Positions 1,564-60,214 of a stretch of DNA of 64,000 nucleotides are shown here, piece after piece. The stretch lies in NCBI GenBank assembly GCA_963575645.1, contig OY754469.1, positions 23,454,001 to 23,518,000 on the forward strand, given 5' to 3'. Below the pieces are notes generated by a model. The model made no database searches. It saw only the letters and a program-made list of their open reading frames with translations, and was not told where the DNA came from. Each line of letters opens with the position of its first letter. Position 1 is the stretch's first letter. This DNA comes from Xanthostigma xanthostigma. Its lineage: Eukaryota > Arthropoda > Insecta > Raphidioptera > Raphidiidae. Made by a program: the position numbers and the translations under genes.

Positions 1564-2443
1564 GAAAACTATTTTTTCCGATGAAGGGAGTTTTTTTGGT
1601 TGAGGATCATAAGTAAATAAGTTTTACCGATGTTTCGCTAGTGGCCAACGTTTCAAAAAATTTATTTTCATCTTCAGGGCCTATGAACATGTATATATGC
1701 CTATATTAATTAGATCATAATATTATATCCAACAGTTACAATAAGTTTTTTTTATTAGAGCTACTATAGGTACTTATATAAAAAATCTACTATATACCTC
1801 AAGCTGGTCGAAAGGTGGTAAATTATTAAAACAACATACATGATCATATTAATATGGGTTAAAAATTATTAATATGAACATCTTTTATAAAAAAAACATT
1901 AAAAAAATTATTAAAATTTTATAAAAATGTCACGCAGTAAAAAATTTATTGAGATATTTGTCTGACAATATATAACCAAAAAGCACTTTCTGTGGACTGA
2001 TATTTGATACTGATCAGACAAATATTTCAATAAATTTTTTACTGCGTGACATTTTTATAAAAATTTAATAATTGTTTTAAAGTTTATTTATAAAAGATGT
2101 TCATATTAATAATTTTTAACCCATAATAATATGATCATGTATGTTGTTTTAACAATTTACCACCTTTCGATCAGCTTGAGGTATGTAATAGATTTTTTCA
2201 CTATTATATAGTAGCTCTAATAAAAAAAAACTTATTGTAACTGTTAGAGACAATATTATGATCTAAATATAAACATATATACATGTTCATAGGCCCTGAA
2301 GATGAAAATACATTTTTCGAAACGTTAGCCACTAGCGAAACATTGGTAAAGCTTATTTACTTATGATCCTCAACCAAAAACCTTCCTTCATCGTAACATT
2401 CTATTGGATCAACACTACTTTATACTGAAGACTGTTTTTTCCG
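1564..2443. mobile_element. Foldback element with hammerhead-like core at the arms
   Basis: Two arms of about 390 bp (about 1577-1970 and 2010-2394) are near-perfect reverse complements around a short spacer at about 1985. The right arm reads CTGAAGA (2296-2302), then a possible hairpin (GAAAAT paired with ATTTTTC), then CGAAACGTT (2319-2327). This is the order of a hammerhead ribozyme core. Beyond the right arm lies an unpaired tail of about 33 nt. The arms plus tail are bounded by imperfect 17-bp repeats ending in TTTTTTCCG (1561-1577 and 2427-2443, two mismatches), possibly the target duplication. No coding capacity. Confidence 0.65.
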
Positions 2444-8585: not shown

Positions 8586-8806
8586 ACCATAATATCAAAT
8601 CTTTGATTAACGTCTGATTAGAACTCTTCAATAAATAAAATTATCGACCAATTTTTCAGACAATATATTAACAAAAAATATAATATTTATTAATACATTA
8701 ACGATTCGATCCGGATCGAAACGTTCATGTATTAACTATATTTTTTGTAAATATATTGTCTGAAAAATTGGTCGATAATTTTATTTATTGAAAACCATAA
8801 TATCAA
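8586..8806. mobile_element. Asymmetric foldback retroelement, copy 1 (13-bp TSD)
   Basis: Element 8599-8793 lies between direct repeats ACCATAATATCAA (8586-8598 and 8794-8806). It has a unique head of about 32 nt with TTTGATTAACGTCTGA, then a left arm (8631-8683) and an inverted right arm (8738-8791). The centre has CGATCCGGATCGAAACG, which keeps the GAAACG box but has lost the CTGAAGA part. Same family as 37341-37532 and 59818-60201. Confidence 0.85.
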
Positions 8807-17348: not shown

Positions 17349-17386
17349 TGAAAAATTACTAATTATTAATAATTAGTAATTTTTCA
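17349..17386. repeat. Perfect AT-rich palindrome
   Basis: GAAAAATTACTAATTATTAA reads into its complement ending AGTAATTTTTC; it would form a hairpin without a loop. Confidence 0.75.
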
Positions 17387-17689
17387 ATAACAAATTTTTG
17401 AAAAAAAAATAATTTAAACAAATTTTAGTTGCCTATTTACAATACTAATAAATAAAATTCGTTTTTTATATTTTTTATATTATTTAGCATAAATAATTAT
17501 TAAGATGTGTACTGACACGTAAATTGGTTATTGTTTTAATAAAGATTGTTTGAAAAAATTAGTCGGAAATTTTATTTATTGTTATGCTACAAAGATTTTA
17601 ATAACATTTTAGTGGTTCATCCAAAACTAATTAAACATAGAAAAATCACTAGTTTAATGGTTGATCTAGTGCCTGATCGAAGCTTTTAT

Positions 17690-20949: not shown

Positions 20950-21022
20950 TATAGTCACTTTAAAATCTTTGATTAACATCTGATTAGAATTCTTCAATAT
21001 TTATTGAAGTATAGTCACTTTA
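20950..21022. mobile_element. 47-bp minimal copy of the asymmetric foldback (13-bp TSD)
   Basis: 20963-21009 is flanked by direct repeats TATAGTCACTTTA (20950-20962 and 21010-21022). It consists only of the family's head (AAATCTTTGATTAACATCTG) followed by an 18-nt hairpin CTTCAATATTTATTGAAG. The long arms and the core seen at 59818-60201 are absent. It fixes both boundaries of the family. Confidence 0.85.
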
Positions 21023-37325: not shown

Positions 37326-37547
37326 TTACCTACAGAATATTCAAATTTTTGATTAACATCTGAATAGAACTCTTCAAATAAATAAAATTGTCGACCAATT
37401 TTTCTCAGACCAATATATTGACAAAAAATAAAAAAATAAATCAATATAACACAAGATGACGTTTCGATCCGGATTTTATTTTTTTTTTTTTGTCAAAATA
37501 TTTGTCTGAGAAAAATTGGTCGACAATTTTATTTACCTACAGAATAT
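37326..37547. mobile_element. Asymmetric foldback retroelement, copy 2 (15-bp TSD)
   Basis: Element 37341-37532 lies between direct repeats TTACCTACAGAATAT (37326-37340 and 37533-37547). It has the same head (TTTGATTAACATCTGAATAG) and arms (GTCGACCAATTTTTCTCAGA) as copy 3. The centre keeps GACGTTTCGATCCGG, the inverse of the GGATCGAAACGTC box. It interrupts copy C of another family. Confidence 0.9.
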
Positions 37548-48321: not shown

Positions 48322-48717
48322 TGTAGAGTGCCGTATTCCTGTATATCAGTTTCACGTTCGGTCTAAATAATTAGAAAAAATATTAATCATAAATTCTAAA
48401 AACGATTGCGTCATATAGTTTCTTCGGGTATACATACGTATTTAATGAGAAGTGGATCATATTTCAAAAACTAAATTTTAATTTGACCCATACAGACATA
48501 CAAATATGGTTTCAAACTTAAGAAAACTGAAAAACCAACAAACAAATCGCCAGTTTCCAGGCTCAAATTGGGGACTGTTAAAAGAATCAGTTGTTTTTTC
48601 ATTCAAAAGTGAACCTTAGCAAATGATTGTAGTATTACATAAATGGTAATGAGACTACATCCATGAAAGGTTTCGGGGATATCTCAACATACAAACAGAT
48701 TATAATATACAAAAAAC

Positions 48718-50745
48718 TTAGCCATTTTGAAAAACCTTAAAAATAAAGATTGCTTCTACTTAAAAGCTGACAAAGGAAACACTGTTGTGATTTTGGATAA
48801 ACAAGACTACTTTAATAGAGGTAATAAATTACTCCAAGAAGGACCGTACATCAACATTCCCAAGAACCCACTTCCAAAATTCGTTAACAATGTTAAAAAT
48901 TGTTTAAAACAATGCCCCTTATTGATACGGAAAAAAGACGTATCAAAATTCGTGACCTCAAAACCAGTTTTACCCAAAATGTACTGTTTACCTAAAATCC
49001 ATAAACCGGGCAAATTAATGAGACCGATCGTTAATAACATCGACTCCCCTACCTATATTTTATCTAAATGGTTAACTACGGAATTTAGTAAAATGCAGCA
49101 AATCCATGATCAGTTTTCAATTAAAAACAGCTTAGATTTAGTAACCAAGATCAAAGACATAAAATTAAAAAGTAGCGAACTATTAGTTTCTTTTGATGTC
49201 TGTGCTCTCTTCCCAAGTATCCCTATAGAGATGACGCTTAAACACCTCAAAAACTTTCTTTTGTTAAATAATATTGACCTTGATAGTATTAATGAATACA
49301 TAAAATTAACTGAAACTTGCATGTACAATAACTTTTTTCAATTCAACGGTAAGTTTTATAAACAACACTCTGGTACGGCTATGGGTAATTGTCTTTCCCC
49401 CTTTATTGCAAACTTATTTATGTGCAACTTAGAATCAGAAATTAAAAACGACCTTAAATATTTCCCCCGCGTTTGGTTTAGGTACGTTGATGATATTTTT
49501 GCCATCTTCGATACTAATAAGTACGATATTAATAGCTTCATTGATGATCTCAACAGTCGATATCCATCCATTAAATTCACTCATGAAATTGAAACCAACA
49601 ATAGCATACCTTTTTTAGACCTCATGATCCACAAAAAAATAGACTCATTAGAATTTGACATTTATAGAAAACCGACGAACAATAACAGATATATTATGAA
49701 CCATTCTAATCACCCCCTAATACACAAACAAGCGACCTTCCAAAGTATGATACATCGACTGTTAACTATTCCTCTTAACAAGCATCGTTTTGATCATGAA
49801 TTACTTAATATAATTAATATAGCTGAATTAAACGGTTATTCTAAAGATATGGTTTTGAATATTCTCAAAAAGAAAAAAGTAAAGTTAAATTTTAGAAATA
49901 GTACGACACTAATTACAGATAATCCCCCATTAAAATATATTGGCCTAACATACGATCCCATTCTTACTAAAGGCTTAGATAATATATTCAAAAACGTTAA
50001 TTTAATTAAAGCCTTTAAAAATGAAAACAGTATTAGTAAACACCTAGGTAACCCGAAAGACAGCACACCCACTTTAGAAAAGTCTGGTATATACAAAATT
50101 AATTGCGGTACGTGTGACAAATTATACATAGGACAAACCCGACGTCAAATAGCTACCAGATGGAAAGAACACTTCTCCCATATAAAATTTTGTAGACCGG
50201 ACAAATCCAGCGTAGCTAACCATATTTTAGAAACTAACCATGACATTAGTATAAATAACTTAAGTTTGCTAAAAACAGTACATAATAAACAGCAGTTGGA
50301 TAGTTTTGAAAGTATATACATAGCCAAGAGTGACACACAGAAACTTTTAAATTCAGATAATGGCCCTATACCTTTTTCAGCATTATTCGATCTTTTGTAA
50401 CCGAAGTTCGTTAATTTTTGTGTTTTTTGGTTTTGTTGTTTCCTTTGTTTTTTACAGAATTTTCATTGACATGGACCAGCGCTTGGTTGACATTGTTTCA
50501 GGTATATTTTGGATATACCAGATTGACGTTACCTGACTTTTCATAAGTCAATGGTTAATTTTTAGTACCTGTATTATTATTTTAATTTATACCTGTAATT
50601 GCTATATAATGTAAAGATTTTTGTTTATGAACTTAGTTTAGTGTATTGCTAAAGATGTAAGCATAGCTCTCGAAATGTACATCCACTAATAAACTTGTTG
50701 TGGTAAGAAGTAACTATTCTATTTTTTATTAGATTATAATATAAT
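48718..50745 (+). mobile_element. Penelope-like retroelement, 5'-truncated
   Basis: Consists of the RT plus GIY-YIG frame (48727-50400) and about 340 bp of 3' sequence. The 3' sequence contains CTAAAGATG...CTCTCGAAATGTACATCC (50650-50687), the position of the hammerhead-like motif in Penelope-like elements, and ends near TTGTGGTAAGAAGTAACTAT. No start codon or conserved N-terminal segment is found upstream; an in-frame stop lies at 48703-48705. Confidence 0.88.
48727..50400 (+). CDS. Penelope-like reverse transcriptase with GIY-YIG endonuclease (557 codons, N-terminus missing)
   Basis: The protein copies the element's RNA into DNA at a nick made by its own endonuclease. Residue numbers count from the TTG at 48727; the frame is open back to 48706 without an ATG, so the true N-terminus is lost. 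Order: LKADKGNTVVILD (12-24), LPKIHKPG (88-95) and RPIVNNI (99-105), RT motif A FDVCALFPSIP (156-166), motif B SGTAMGNCLSPFIANL (215-230), the catalytic YVDD (253-256), IPFLDL (294-299), YRKPT (313-317). The C-terminal GIY-YIG domain has GIY at 454-456, YIG at 467-469 and the conserved Arg in TRW (478), with Glu529 a candidate metal ligand. No stop or frameshift interrupts 1.67 kb, so this copy is young, though probably dead because of its truncated start. Confidence 0.9.
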   Translation: MKNLKNKDCFYLKADKGNTVVILDKQDYFNRGNKLLQEGPYINIPKNPLPKFVNNVKNCLKQCPLLIRKKDVSKFVTSKPVLPKMYCLPKIHKPGKLMRPIVNNIDSPTYILSKWLTTEFSKMQQIHDQFSIKNSLDLVTKIKDIKLKSSELLVSFDVCALFPSIPIEMTLKHLKNFLLLNNIDLDSINEYIKLTETCMYNNFFQFNGKFYKQHSGTAMGNCLSPFIANLFMCNLESEIKNDLKYFPRVWFRYVDDIFAIFDTNKYDINSFIDDLNSRYPSIKFTHEIETNNSIPFLDLMIHKKIDSLEFDIYRKPTNNNRYIMNHSNHPLIHKQATFQSMIHRLLTIPLNKHRFDHELLNIINIAELNGYSKDMVLNILKKKKVKLNFRNSTTLITDNPPLKYIGLTYDPILTKGLDNIFKNVNLIKAFKNENSISKHLGNPKDSTPTLEKSGIYKINCGTCDKLYIGQTRRQIATRWKEHFSHIKFCRPDKSSVANHILETNHDISINNLSLLKTVHNKQQLDSFESIYIAKSDTQKLLNSDNGPIPFSALFDLL

Positions 50746-52769: not shown

Positions 52770-53045
52770 CAGTAAAGTGGTACGAGATACAAGGCTACAA
52801 AATTTTAAATCAATTTTTATTCACTAAAACGTTCTTTAATGGCCAATGTTCGGCAATATTTTTTGCTTTCCTCACGACCTTAAAAATGTAGCGAGAAGTC
52901 ACAGCTTTAAAACACAATTTTTCGCTAATTTTTTTAAGATTCTGAGGAAACAAAAATATTTCCGAAACGTTGGCCATTAAAGAATGCTTTAGTGAATAAA
53001 AAATGTTTTAAAAATTTCGAGCCTCGTATCCCGTACCACTTTACC
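52770..53045. mobile_element. Foldback with GAAACGTTGGCC core
   Basis: Ends CAGTAAAGTGGTACGAGATA and CGTATCCCGTACCACTTTA. The right arm contains CTGAGGA (52940-52946), a helix II candidate GGAAA...TTTCC and GAAACGTTGGCCATTAAAG (52965-52983). The left arm carries the diverged inverse (CTTTAATGGCCAATGTTCGG). Same layout as 1564-2443 but a different sequence. Target duplication not found. Confidence 0.65.
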
Positions 53046-59804: not shown

Positions 59805-60214
59805 ATATTAAACTATTAAAATCTTTGATTAACGTCTGAATAGAACTCTTCAAATAAATAAAACTGTCGACCAATTTTTCTCAGACCAATATATTGACAA
59901 AAAATAAAAAATAACAAATCAATACAACTCAAGATGACGTTTCGATCCGGCTTTGGAGCTTTTTCAGAAAAATCTAAATATATAAAAATTAATTAGTATT
60001 AAATTATTAATTATTATTAATTGCACTTAGATAATAATTAAGAATTTAATACTAATTAATTTTTATATTTTTAGATTTTTCTGAAGAAGATCCAAAGCCG
60101 GATCGAAACGTCATCTTGTGTTGTATTGATTTGTTATTTTTTATTTTTTGTCAATATATTGGTCTGAGAAAAATTGGTCGCCAATTTTATTTATTTAAAA
60201 TATATTAAACTATT
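59805..60214. mobile_element. Asymmetric foldback retroelement, copy 3 (13-bp TSD, best hammerhead-like core)
   Basis: Element 59818-60201 lies between direct repeats ATATTAAACTATT (59805-59817 and 60202-60214). The head is AAATCTTTGATTAACGTCTG, then a left arm and an inverted right arm of about 170 bp. The right arm has CTGAAGA (60080-60086), a helix II candidate GATCC-AAAGCC-GGATC and GAAACGTC. The left arm carries the same core with CTGAAAA. It is the longest member of the family. Confidence 0.9.

What the first reader, a model, noticed from the sequence alone, without database searches (positions are those of the whole stretch)
59805..60214. Hammerhead-like cores in foldback elements with long target duplications
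Three long copies (8599-8793, 37341-37532, 59818-60201) share a single-copy head of about 33 nt, inverted arms and direct flanking repeats of 13, 15 and 13 bp. DNA transposons give short fixed duplications (TA, 4 or 8 bp, as elsewhere in this window). Duplications of 13-15 bp fit target-primed retrotransposition. The right arm of the longest copy reads CTGAAGA, a GATCC/GGATC stem and GAAACGTC, in hammerhead order. Hammerhead motifs are established in Penelope-like elements. The inference is that these are non-autonomous, ribozyme-bearing snap-back products, perhaps mobilised by a Penelope-like enzyme such as that at 48727-50400. Helix I pairing is weak in these copies, so activity may be lost.
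Basis: partly seen in the sequence, partly recalled or inferred. Interest (0 to 1): 0.78.

Follow-up and report, generated by a model that had tools for sequence, protein, structure and literature searches.

The report
Truncated Penelope insertions, folded back
The repeats are cut-short insertions of a Penelope-type jumping gene that seem to form when both ends of a broken chromosome site each copy the same stretch of its RNA, which leaves thousands of small inverted copies with a ribozyme-like motif.

Summary
In detail: three foldback inserts with a 33-nt single-copy head and 13/15/13-bp target duplications, plus a 47-bp fourth copy. They are not a separate non-autonomous element. Head and arms lie just upstream of the ORF of a GIY-YIG Penelope-like element (PLE) elsewhere in this genome, a different family from the PLE at 48706-50400. 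The head is the known PLE 'tail'; it has about 16,800 hits in 623 Mb. Of 104 tail-bearing rows, 82 have a second arm: 69 end at one fixed site without tail, 2 (one element) with a tail, 11 elsewhere. Arms of one copy often reach unequally far (46 of 69). Target duplications of 10-17 bp occur in 46 of 69 (mode 13). A full-length copy obeys the same end rule, as do 10 of 13 foldbacks of other PLE families. This argues against snap-back and for two separately primed cDNAs, one from each of two start sites about 33 nt apart, then joined. The hammerhead is real as a PLE motif (stems I and II co-vary over 15 representatives; no Rfam hit), but stem I is weak in the subfamily of the given copy, and insert ends do not gather at its cut site.

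The parts
59805..59817 (.). left target-site duplication ATATTAAACTATT (13 bp) of the given copy
59818..59852 (-). head = Penelope 'tail' (sense on the minus strand), single copy, subfamily A; inner boundary approximate
   Evidence: same sequence upstream of PLE ORFs
59853..60014 (-). left arm: antisense pLTR cDNA, maps to about 197 nt from start site 1; boundary approximate
59936..59967 (-). hammerhead-type core on the minus strand, changed (CTGAAAAAGCTCC)
60027..60201 (+). right arm: sense pLTR, ends at start site 2 without tail; boundary approximate
60081..60112 (+). hammerhead-type core CTGAAGA-A-GATCC/GGATC-GAAACGTC
   Evidence: (not recognised by Rfam)
60202..60214 (.). right target-site duplication
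8586..8806 (-). foldback copy 8599-8793 with 13-bp duplications; subfamily B; arms meet at the palindrome TTCGATCCGGATCGAA
37326..37547 (-). foldback copy 37341-37532 with 15-bp duplications; subfamily A; arms of unequal reach (137 and 103)
20950..21022 (-). 47-bp minimal copy 20963-21009 (tail plus a few bases of each arm) with 13-bp duplications TATAGTCACTTTA
48706..50400 (+). PLE ORF fragment (RT + GIY-YIG) of a different PLE family; not the source of the foldbacks
50649..50677 (+). damaged hammerhead-type core downstream of that PLE ORF (family form CTGAAGATGAGAGC ATA GCTCTC GAAATG)
1572..2443 (+). foldback of a third PLE family (1581-2434) with two hammerhead-type cores head to head (1649-1677 minus, 2296-2324 plus), extension on the right only; its 9-bp direct repeat TTTTTTCCG is near chance level

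Best explanation
Each foldback is one integration of RNA from an autonomous GIY-YIG Penelope-like element. Shown: tail, pLTR and core lie directly upstream of PLE ORFs; inserts have 10-17-bp target duplications; one end starts at site 1 (with the 33-nt tail), the other mostly at site 2 (without); the two arms copy the same template region to different depths; both arms come from like templates. Inferred: the enzyme cuts both target strands with a stagger of about 13 nt, each 3' end primes its own cDNA inside the same RNA region (one at each start site), and the two like-sense cDNAs are joined end to end, at a template palindrome where one is available. Full-length copies result when the tailed cDNA runs through the ORF; foldbacks result when both stop early. 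The hammerhead is carried along as part of the pLTR.
For: The tail before PLE ORFs: in 5 of 18 upstream pieces examined (4 with 0 mismatches, 1 with 1), two of them with the hammerhead core; the open frames there are 765-837 aa, 32-33% identical to the window PLE. Of 104 tail rows (99 of the 100 hits listed, one further tail inside a fetched locus, 4 in the window): 69 second arms end at site 2 without tail, 2 rows (one element seen from both sides) have a tail at both ends, 11 end elsewhere, 22 have no second arm found. Genome-wide 28,957 arm ends against 15,866 tails, ratio 1.83, by 22-base patterns with 1 mismatch; one tail per insert predicts about 2. Reach: second arm longer by more than 15 nt in 28, equal in 23, shorter in 18 of 69; among the 46 with duplications of 10 or more, 19/18/9. 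Subfamily of the two arms agrees in 68 of 69 (50% expected), and own arms are more alike than swapped arms. Full-length copy on C6 (3286 bp): 14-bp duplication TAATAATGGTATAC, 5' end a 34-nt inverted tail-less piece, 3' end at site 1 (read by eye). Other families: 10 of 13 HHR-paired foldbacks have a flanking direct repeat of 10-17 bp (swapped flanks: 5 of 156) with an extension of 21-52 nt on one side only. PMC11167929 (section 3 read): a purified PLE protein cuts and extends both strands and starts at two adjacent internal RNA sites whose interval is the tail.
Against: PMC11167929 saw no difference in start site between the two strands in vitro, so the pairing seen here is not explained by that assay. 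Equal reach is commoner than chance (23 against 12.0 shuffled, 1 of 5000 shuffles as high), and three copies are near-perfect palindromes (154, 72 and 46 bp), which self-folding would also give. 22 of 104 rows have no second arm found and 11 end elsewhere; the simple model does not explain them. 23 of 69 have repeats of only 4-9 bp. Junction microhomology in unequal copies is not above a synthetic null (24% against 23%); the primer microhomology test was inconclusive. In 27 of 69 copies more than 5 nt lie between the mapped arms. The genomic sample is the first 8.4 Mb of one contig and, but for one row, perfect tails only; the mapping consensus was built from some of the same copies.
Confidence: 0.72

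Rival explanations
1. Snap-back: a single cDNA starts at site 1, folds back on a palindrome and copies itself; long palindromes later lose their centres. This is the first reader's reading and close to the self-priming idea in PMC3846280 (passages).
For: Equal reach is in excess; junction palindromes of 10 or more in 19 of 69 against 90 of 941 control windows, among them perfect ones of 154, 72 and 46 bp; own arms are alike.
Against: Copying back along the first cDNA should run through the tail to the target, but 69 of 82 second arms stop at site 2 and only 2 rows (one element) show a tail there. In 28 of 69 the second arm holds template absent from the first. The 3286-bp C6 copy would need some 3 kb to be copied and then lost.
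Confidence: 0.13
2. Template jump: one cDNA starts at site 1 on sense RNA, jumps to an antisense RNA whose 5' end lies at site 2, and copies it to its end.
For: Explains the missing tail and the independent reach; PMC3846280 argues for antisense templates (passages).
Against: Needs an antisense start at site 2 in each of several families. Two primed strands and two start sites are already shown for a PLE protein. No transcript data were at hand.
Confidence: 0.09
3. A non-autonomous foldback or retrozyme-like lineage that moves as its own element.
For: Very many copies (16,785 tail hits); sizes of tens to hundreds of bases.
Against: Turn-round points differ from copy to copy. Seven best matches to the given copy do not share one junction: the middle piece lies the other way round in L004 and L005 (by eye). 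A full-length PLE copy has the same ends.
Confidence: 0.05
4. DNA transposon with terminal inverted repeats (MITE or Foldback type).
For: Inverted arms and high copy number.
Against: Duplications of 10-17 bp without fixed length, a one-sided single-copy end, arms of unequal reach, identity with sequence upstream of a retroelement ORF.
Confidence: 0.01

Closest known systems
Canonical Penelope-like elements with inverted pLTR and 'tail' (Adineta vaga Pen2a, PMC3846280, passages)
   Same: pLTRs in inverted pairs, a 31-bp tail at one of the inverted pLTRs, short variable target duplications, palindromes at the inverted junction.
   Different: Here most sampled inserts are pLTR only and the tail has some 16,800 hits; in the sample nearly every insert has its tail on one end only; arm lengths show that many arms were not copied from each other.
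PAc, Poseidon of Anolis carolinensis (PMC11167929, section 3 read)
   Same: Internal starts of reverse transcription at two adjacent sites that bound the tail; both target strands cut and extended; hammerhead in the pLTR; ribozyme cutting not needed for insertion.
   Different: In vitro no difference of start site between strands was seen; here the two sites are divided one to each end. In PAc transcription starts 111-118 bp inside the ORF, here the tail lies just upstream of the presumed ATG.
Minimal type I hammerheads of PLEs (reviewed in PMC6155905 and PMC7761336, passages; primary papers not held)
   Same: Core without helix III, found in pLTRs and scattered by the thousand in non-coding DNA.
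   Different: One unpaired base between CUGAAGA and stem II in the motifs read here (the primary alignments were not seen, so this may not be new); the scattered copies are explained here as truncated insertions.
L1 twin priming (recalled; not read here)
   Same: Two cDNAs primed at the two sides of one staggered break and joined in inverted orientation.
   Different: As recalled, the second primer in L1 anneals inside the RNA at no fixed place; here both starts are fixed sites.

Membership tests
Penelope-like element insertion | same sequence as the pLTR and tail of an RT + GIY-YIG ORF element | tested here: met
   the domain scan was run on the window PLE, the source family is known by 32-33% identity to it
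Penelope-like element insertion | tail of 30-40 bp at one inverted pLTR end | tested here: met
   (69 of 82 rows with a second arm; 2 rows with tail at both ends, 11 elsewhere)
Penelope-like element insertion | short target duplication without fixed length | tested here: met
   46 of 69 with 10-17 bp; the other 23 gave only 4-9 bp
Penelope-like element insertion | codes its own RT/EN | tested here: not met
   the three window foldbacks have no such frame; they are insertion products, not whole elements
Hammerhead ribozyme, minimal type I | conserved core CUGANGA ... GAAA ... UH | tested here: met
   60081-60112; 15,143 hits of the core pattern genome-wide, reversed control 3
Hammerhead ribozyme, minimal type I | stem II with compensatory changes | tested here: met
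   pairs 2-4: 42 of 45 own against 21.8 swapped, 0 of 20000 permutations; several of the 15 representatives look related, so they are not fully independent
Hammerhead ribozyme, minimal type I | stem I next to the core with compensatory changes | tested here: met
   first 3 pairs: 41 of 45 own against 20.1 swapped over 15 representatives; subfamily A (the given copy) has only 1 of the first 3 pairs, B has 3. A duplex-energy test of the same flanks gave mean -3.9 against -2.6 for shuffles, with A and B not better than shuffles
Hammerhead ribozyme, minimal type I | match to an Rfam hammerhead model | tested here: not met
   no positive control with a known PLE hammerhead was run
Hammerhead ribozyme, minimal type I | self-cleavage | not testable with these tools
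   needs RNA assay
Metazoan retrozyme | tandem direct repeats of a unit with a stable hammerhead | tested here: not met
   arms are inverted; of 19 neighbouring core pairs within 600 bp among the 100 listed hits, 18 are minus-plus, 0 plus-minus, 1 plus-plus
MITE / Foldback DNA transposon | target duplication of fixed length and symmetric termini | tested here: not met

The most novel reading that the evidence does not exclude
Penelope-like elements insert by an obligate two-primer reaction: a staggered cut supplies two primers, each is used once at one of two start sites about 33 nt apart on like RNA, there is no DNA-templated second strand of the usual kind, and the element is closed by joining two like-sense cDNAs. 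The 'tail' and the inverted pLTR are both by-products of this one step. The rule of one tail per insert holds over several PLE families in this genome.
Probability: 0.55. Interest if true: 0.7.

Novelty: new member of a known kind. Interest (0 to 1): 0.56.

Why it matters
How Penelope-like elements, kin of telomerase, finish an insertion is open: PMC11167929 leaves the steps after first-strand synthesis unvalidated. A genome with some 16,800 tail hits, each a frozen event with a start, a turn and often a target duplication, turns that into a counting problem. It also offers a source for the minimal hammerheads scattered in non-coding animal DNA and warns that such foldbacks may be mistaken for MITEs or for ribozyme-driven elements.

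Tried and rejected
Rfam scans found no hammerhead. The search for Rfam family RF00163 in the own genome did not complete. Primer-template microhomology at the two ends was dropped as inconclusive: the duplications were extended to their longest, which inflates the measure. Junction microhomology in unequal copies did not exceed a synthetic null. A peak of insert ends at the predicted ribozyme cut was not seen (8 of 138 arm ends within 3 nt; 62 arms run more than 10 nt beyond it; no formal null was computed). A shared junction among close relatives of the given copy was looked for and not found. Two early mappings (with lenient scoring, on 57 rows) were replaced. A duplex-energy test of stem I was weak over all and gave nothing for subfamilies A and B; the position-wise test replaced it. 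The idea that the window's own PLE is the source was dropped. Of 13 paired foldbacks of other families, L161 gave no flanking repeat and two (L157, 8 bp; window 1581-2434, 9 bp) gave repeats near chance.

Full report
What was seen. The three copies are as described, with exact target duplications of 13, 15 and 13 bp, shared head and inverted arms. A fourth, 47-bp copy at 20963-21009 has the head, a few bases of each arm and 13-bp duplications. Similarity search of the window's own genome (623 Mb, 28 contigs, unnamed) gave 1624 first-look candidates, of which 40 were scored, and the head pattern with up to 2 mismatches 8396 + 8389 hits, against none for the reversed control.

What it is. The PLE at 48706-50400 has RT and GIY-YIG domains but belongs to a family with another pLTR. 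Searching its protein found further PLE families; of 18 pieces taken from upstream of such ORFs, 5 hold the head sequence, 4 of them without mismatch, shortly before the presumed ATG. In one 3286-bp copy on contig C6 the order can be read: 14-bp duplication, 34 nt of inverted pLTR end without tail, the last part of an ORF, pLTR with hammerhead core, tail, ORF (835-aa frame), pLTR, tail, duplication (order by eye; the middle of the ORF was not fetched). So the head is the Penelope 'tail' and the arms are pLTR pieces. Foldbacks are 5'-truncated insertions of this PLE.

How copies differ. I took 99 of the 100 hits listed (all perfect matches, the first 8.4 Mb of contig C1; one, at 2760972, was not fetched), one further tail that lay in a fetched locus, and the 4 in the window. 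Of these 104 rows the second arm ends at site 2 without tail in 69, carries a tail in 2 (one element counted from both sides), ends elsewhere in 11, and was not found in 22, the 47-bp copy among them. In 68 of the 69 the second end lies 25-37 nt from site 1. Target duplications of 10 or more occur in 46 of 69 (13 bp in 22, 14 bp in 12), against 0.27% of swapped flanks. The reach of the first arm ranges from 43 to 238 nt and that of the second from 50 to 443. The second is longer by more than 15 nt in 28, about equal in 23 and shorter in 18 of 69; equal reach is commoner than in shuffled pairs (12.0), and junctions sit at palindromes of 10 or more bases more often than control windows (19 of 69 against 90 of 941). 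Both arms are of one subfamily in 68 of 69; the odd one, L141, is short and mixed. Own arms are more alike than swapped ones. The one-tail rule is not an artefact of choosing tailed copies: patterns of equal length give 28,957 arm ends and 15,866 tails in the genome. An independent choice of start at each end would, at that ratio, put a tail on about half of all second ends, not on 1 of 70 elements (69 and 1).

Mechanism. Snap-back fits poorly because the second arm mostly stops short of the tail at a fixed point and often holds sequence that the first arm lacks. Two separately primed cDNAs fit, and a PLE protein is known to cut and extend both strands and to start at two sites that bound the tail (PMC11167929, section 3). 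That both arms come from like templates suggests one RNP, but one RNA cannot be told from two of the same source. A jump to an antisense RNA with its 5' end at site 2 is not excluded. Thirteen foldbacks of five other families, chosen for paired cores, were examined: 10 have a flanking direct repeat of 10-17 bp (swapped flanks: 5 of 156) with an extension of 21-52 nt on one side only; two have 8 and 9 bp, near chance (swapped: 50 and 20 of 156 at those lengths or more), also with a one-sided extension; one had none.

The hammerhead. The pattern CTGAAGANGN{6,24}CGAAAYGT has 15,143 hits, reversed control 3. Over 15 representatives, several of them related, stem I pairs 41 of 45 in its first three positions (20.1 when partners are swapped) and stem II 42 of 45 (21.8), with 0 of 20,000 permutations as high. 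Most representatives were picked by the core pattern, which fixes the first stem II pair. Rfam recognises none of the 12 pieces given and nothing in the window. Insert ends do not gather at the predicted cut (8 of 138 within 3 nt), in line with the finding for PAc that cleavage is not needed for insertion. In the list, neighbouring cores within 600 bp are 18 minus-plus, none plus-minus and one plus-plus, that is, head to head.

What is known. Inverted pLTRs, tails, variable duplications and minimal hammerheads of PLEs are in print (PMC3846280 passages; PMC11167929 section 3; PMC6155905 and PMC7761336 passages). Searches for PLEs with hammerheads (22 papers listed), with pLTR, inverted and target duplication (65 counted, 25 listed), with twin priming (3), with foldback or non-autonomous forms (12 counted, 10 listed) and with target-primed transcription, GIY-YIG and tail since 2020 (1) showed no title or abstract start that states the one-tail rule or the unequal arms; beyond the papers named here (and passages of PMC7229834 and PMC10085705) only listings were seen. 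The library holds open papers only, and the primary papers on PLE hammerheads were not held. So the rule may be in print elsewhere.

Noticed in passing
window 1572-2443: Foldback of a third PLE family with two hammerhead-type cores head to head, one-sided extension and a 9-bp direct repeat TTTTTTCCG that is near chance level.
   Followed up: partly
L028, L029, L036: Three insertions whose second arm is followed by the same unrelated sequence (CAACACGCGTGAGTAATATG...); L029 and L036 show direct repeats of 11 and 8 bp some 710-720 bp apart, so other sequence seems to be carried along, or the target is a repeat.
   Followed up: no
L054: Between two 50-nt arms lie 64 nt that read as antisense GIY-YIG coding sequence, as if the first cDNA had skipped part of the RNA (by eye).
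   Followed up: no
L025: A single-arm insert of about 236 nt with a 9-bp direct repeat and no inverted arm, one of 22 rows without a second arm.
   Followed up: no
window 17361-17581: Inverted repeat whose ends resemble the pLTR end of the foldbacks (AATAAATAAA...TTTTATTTATT), perhaps a further PLE family.
   Followed up: no
window 52942-52969: A further hammerhead-type core CTGAGGAAACAAAAATATTTCCGAAACG.
   Followed up: no
L037 and L021: Two insertions whose 14-bp target duplications share ATTAGTATAGAT, perhaps the same host repeat.
   Followed up: no
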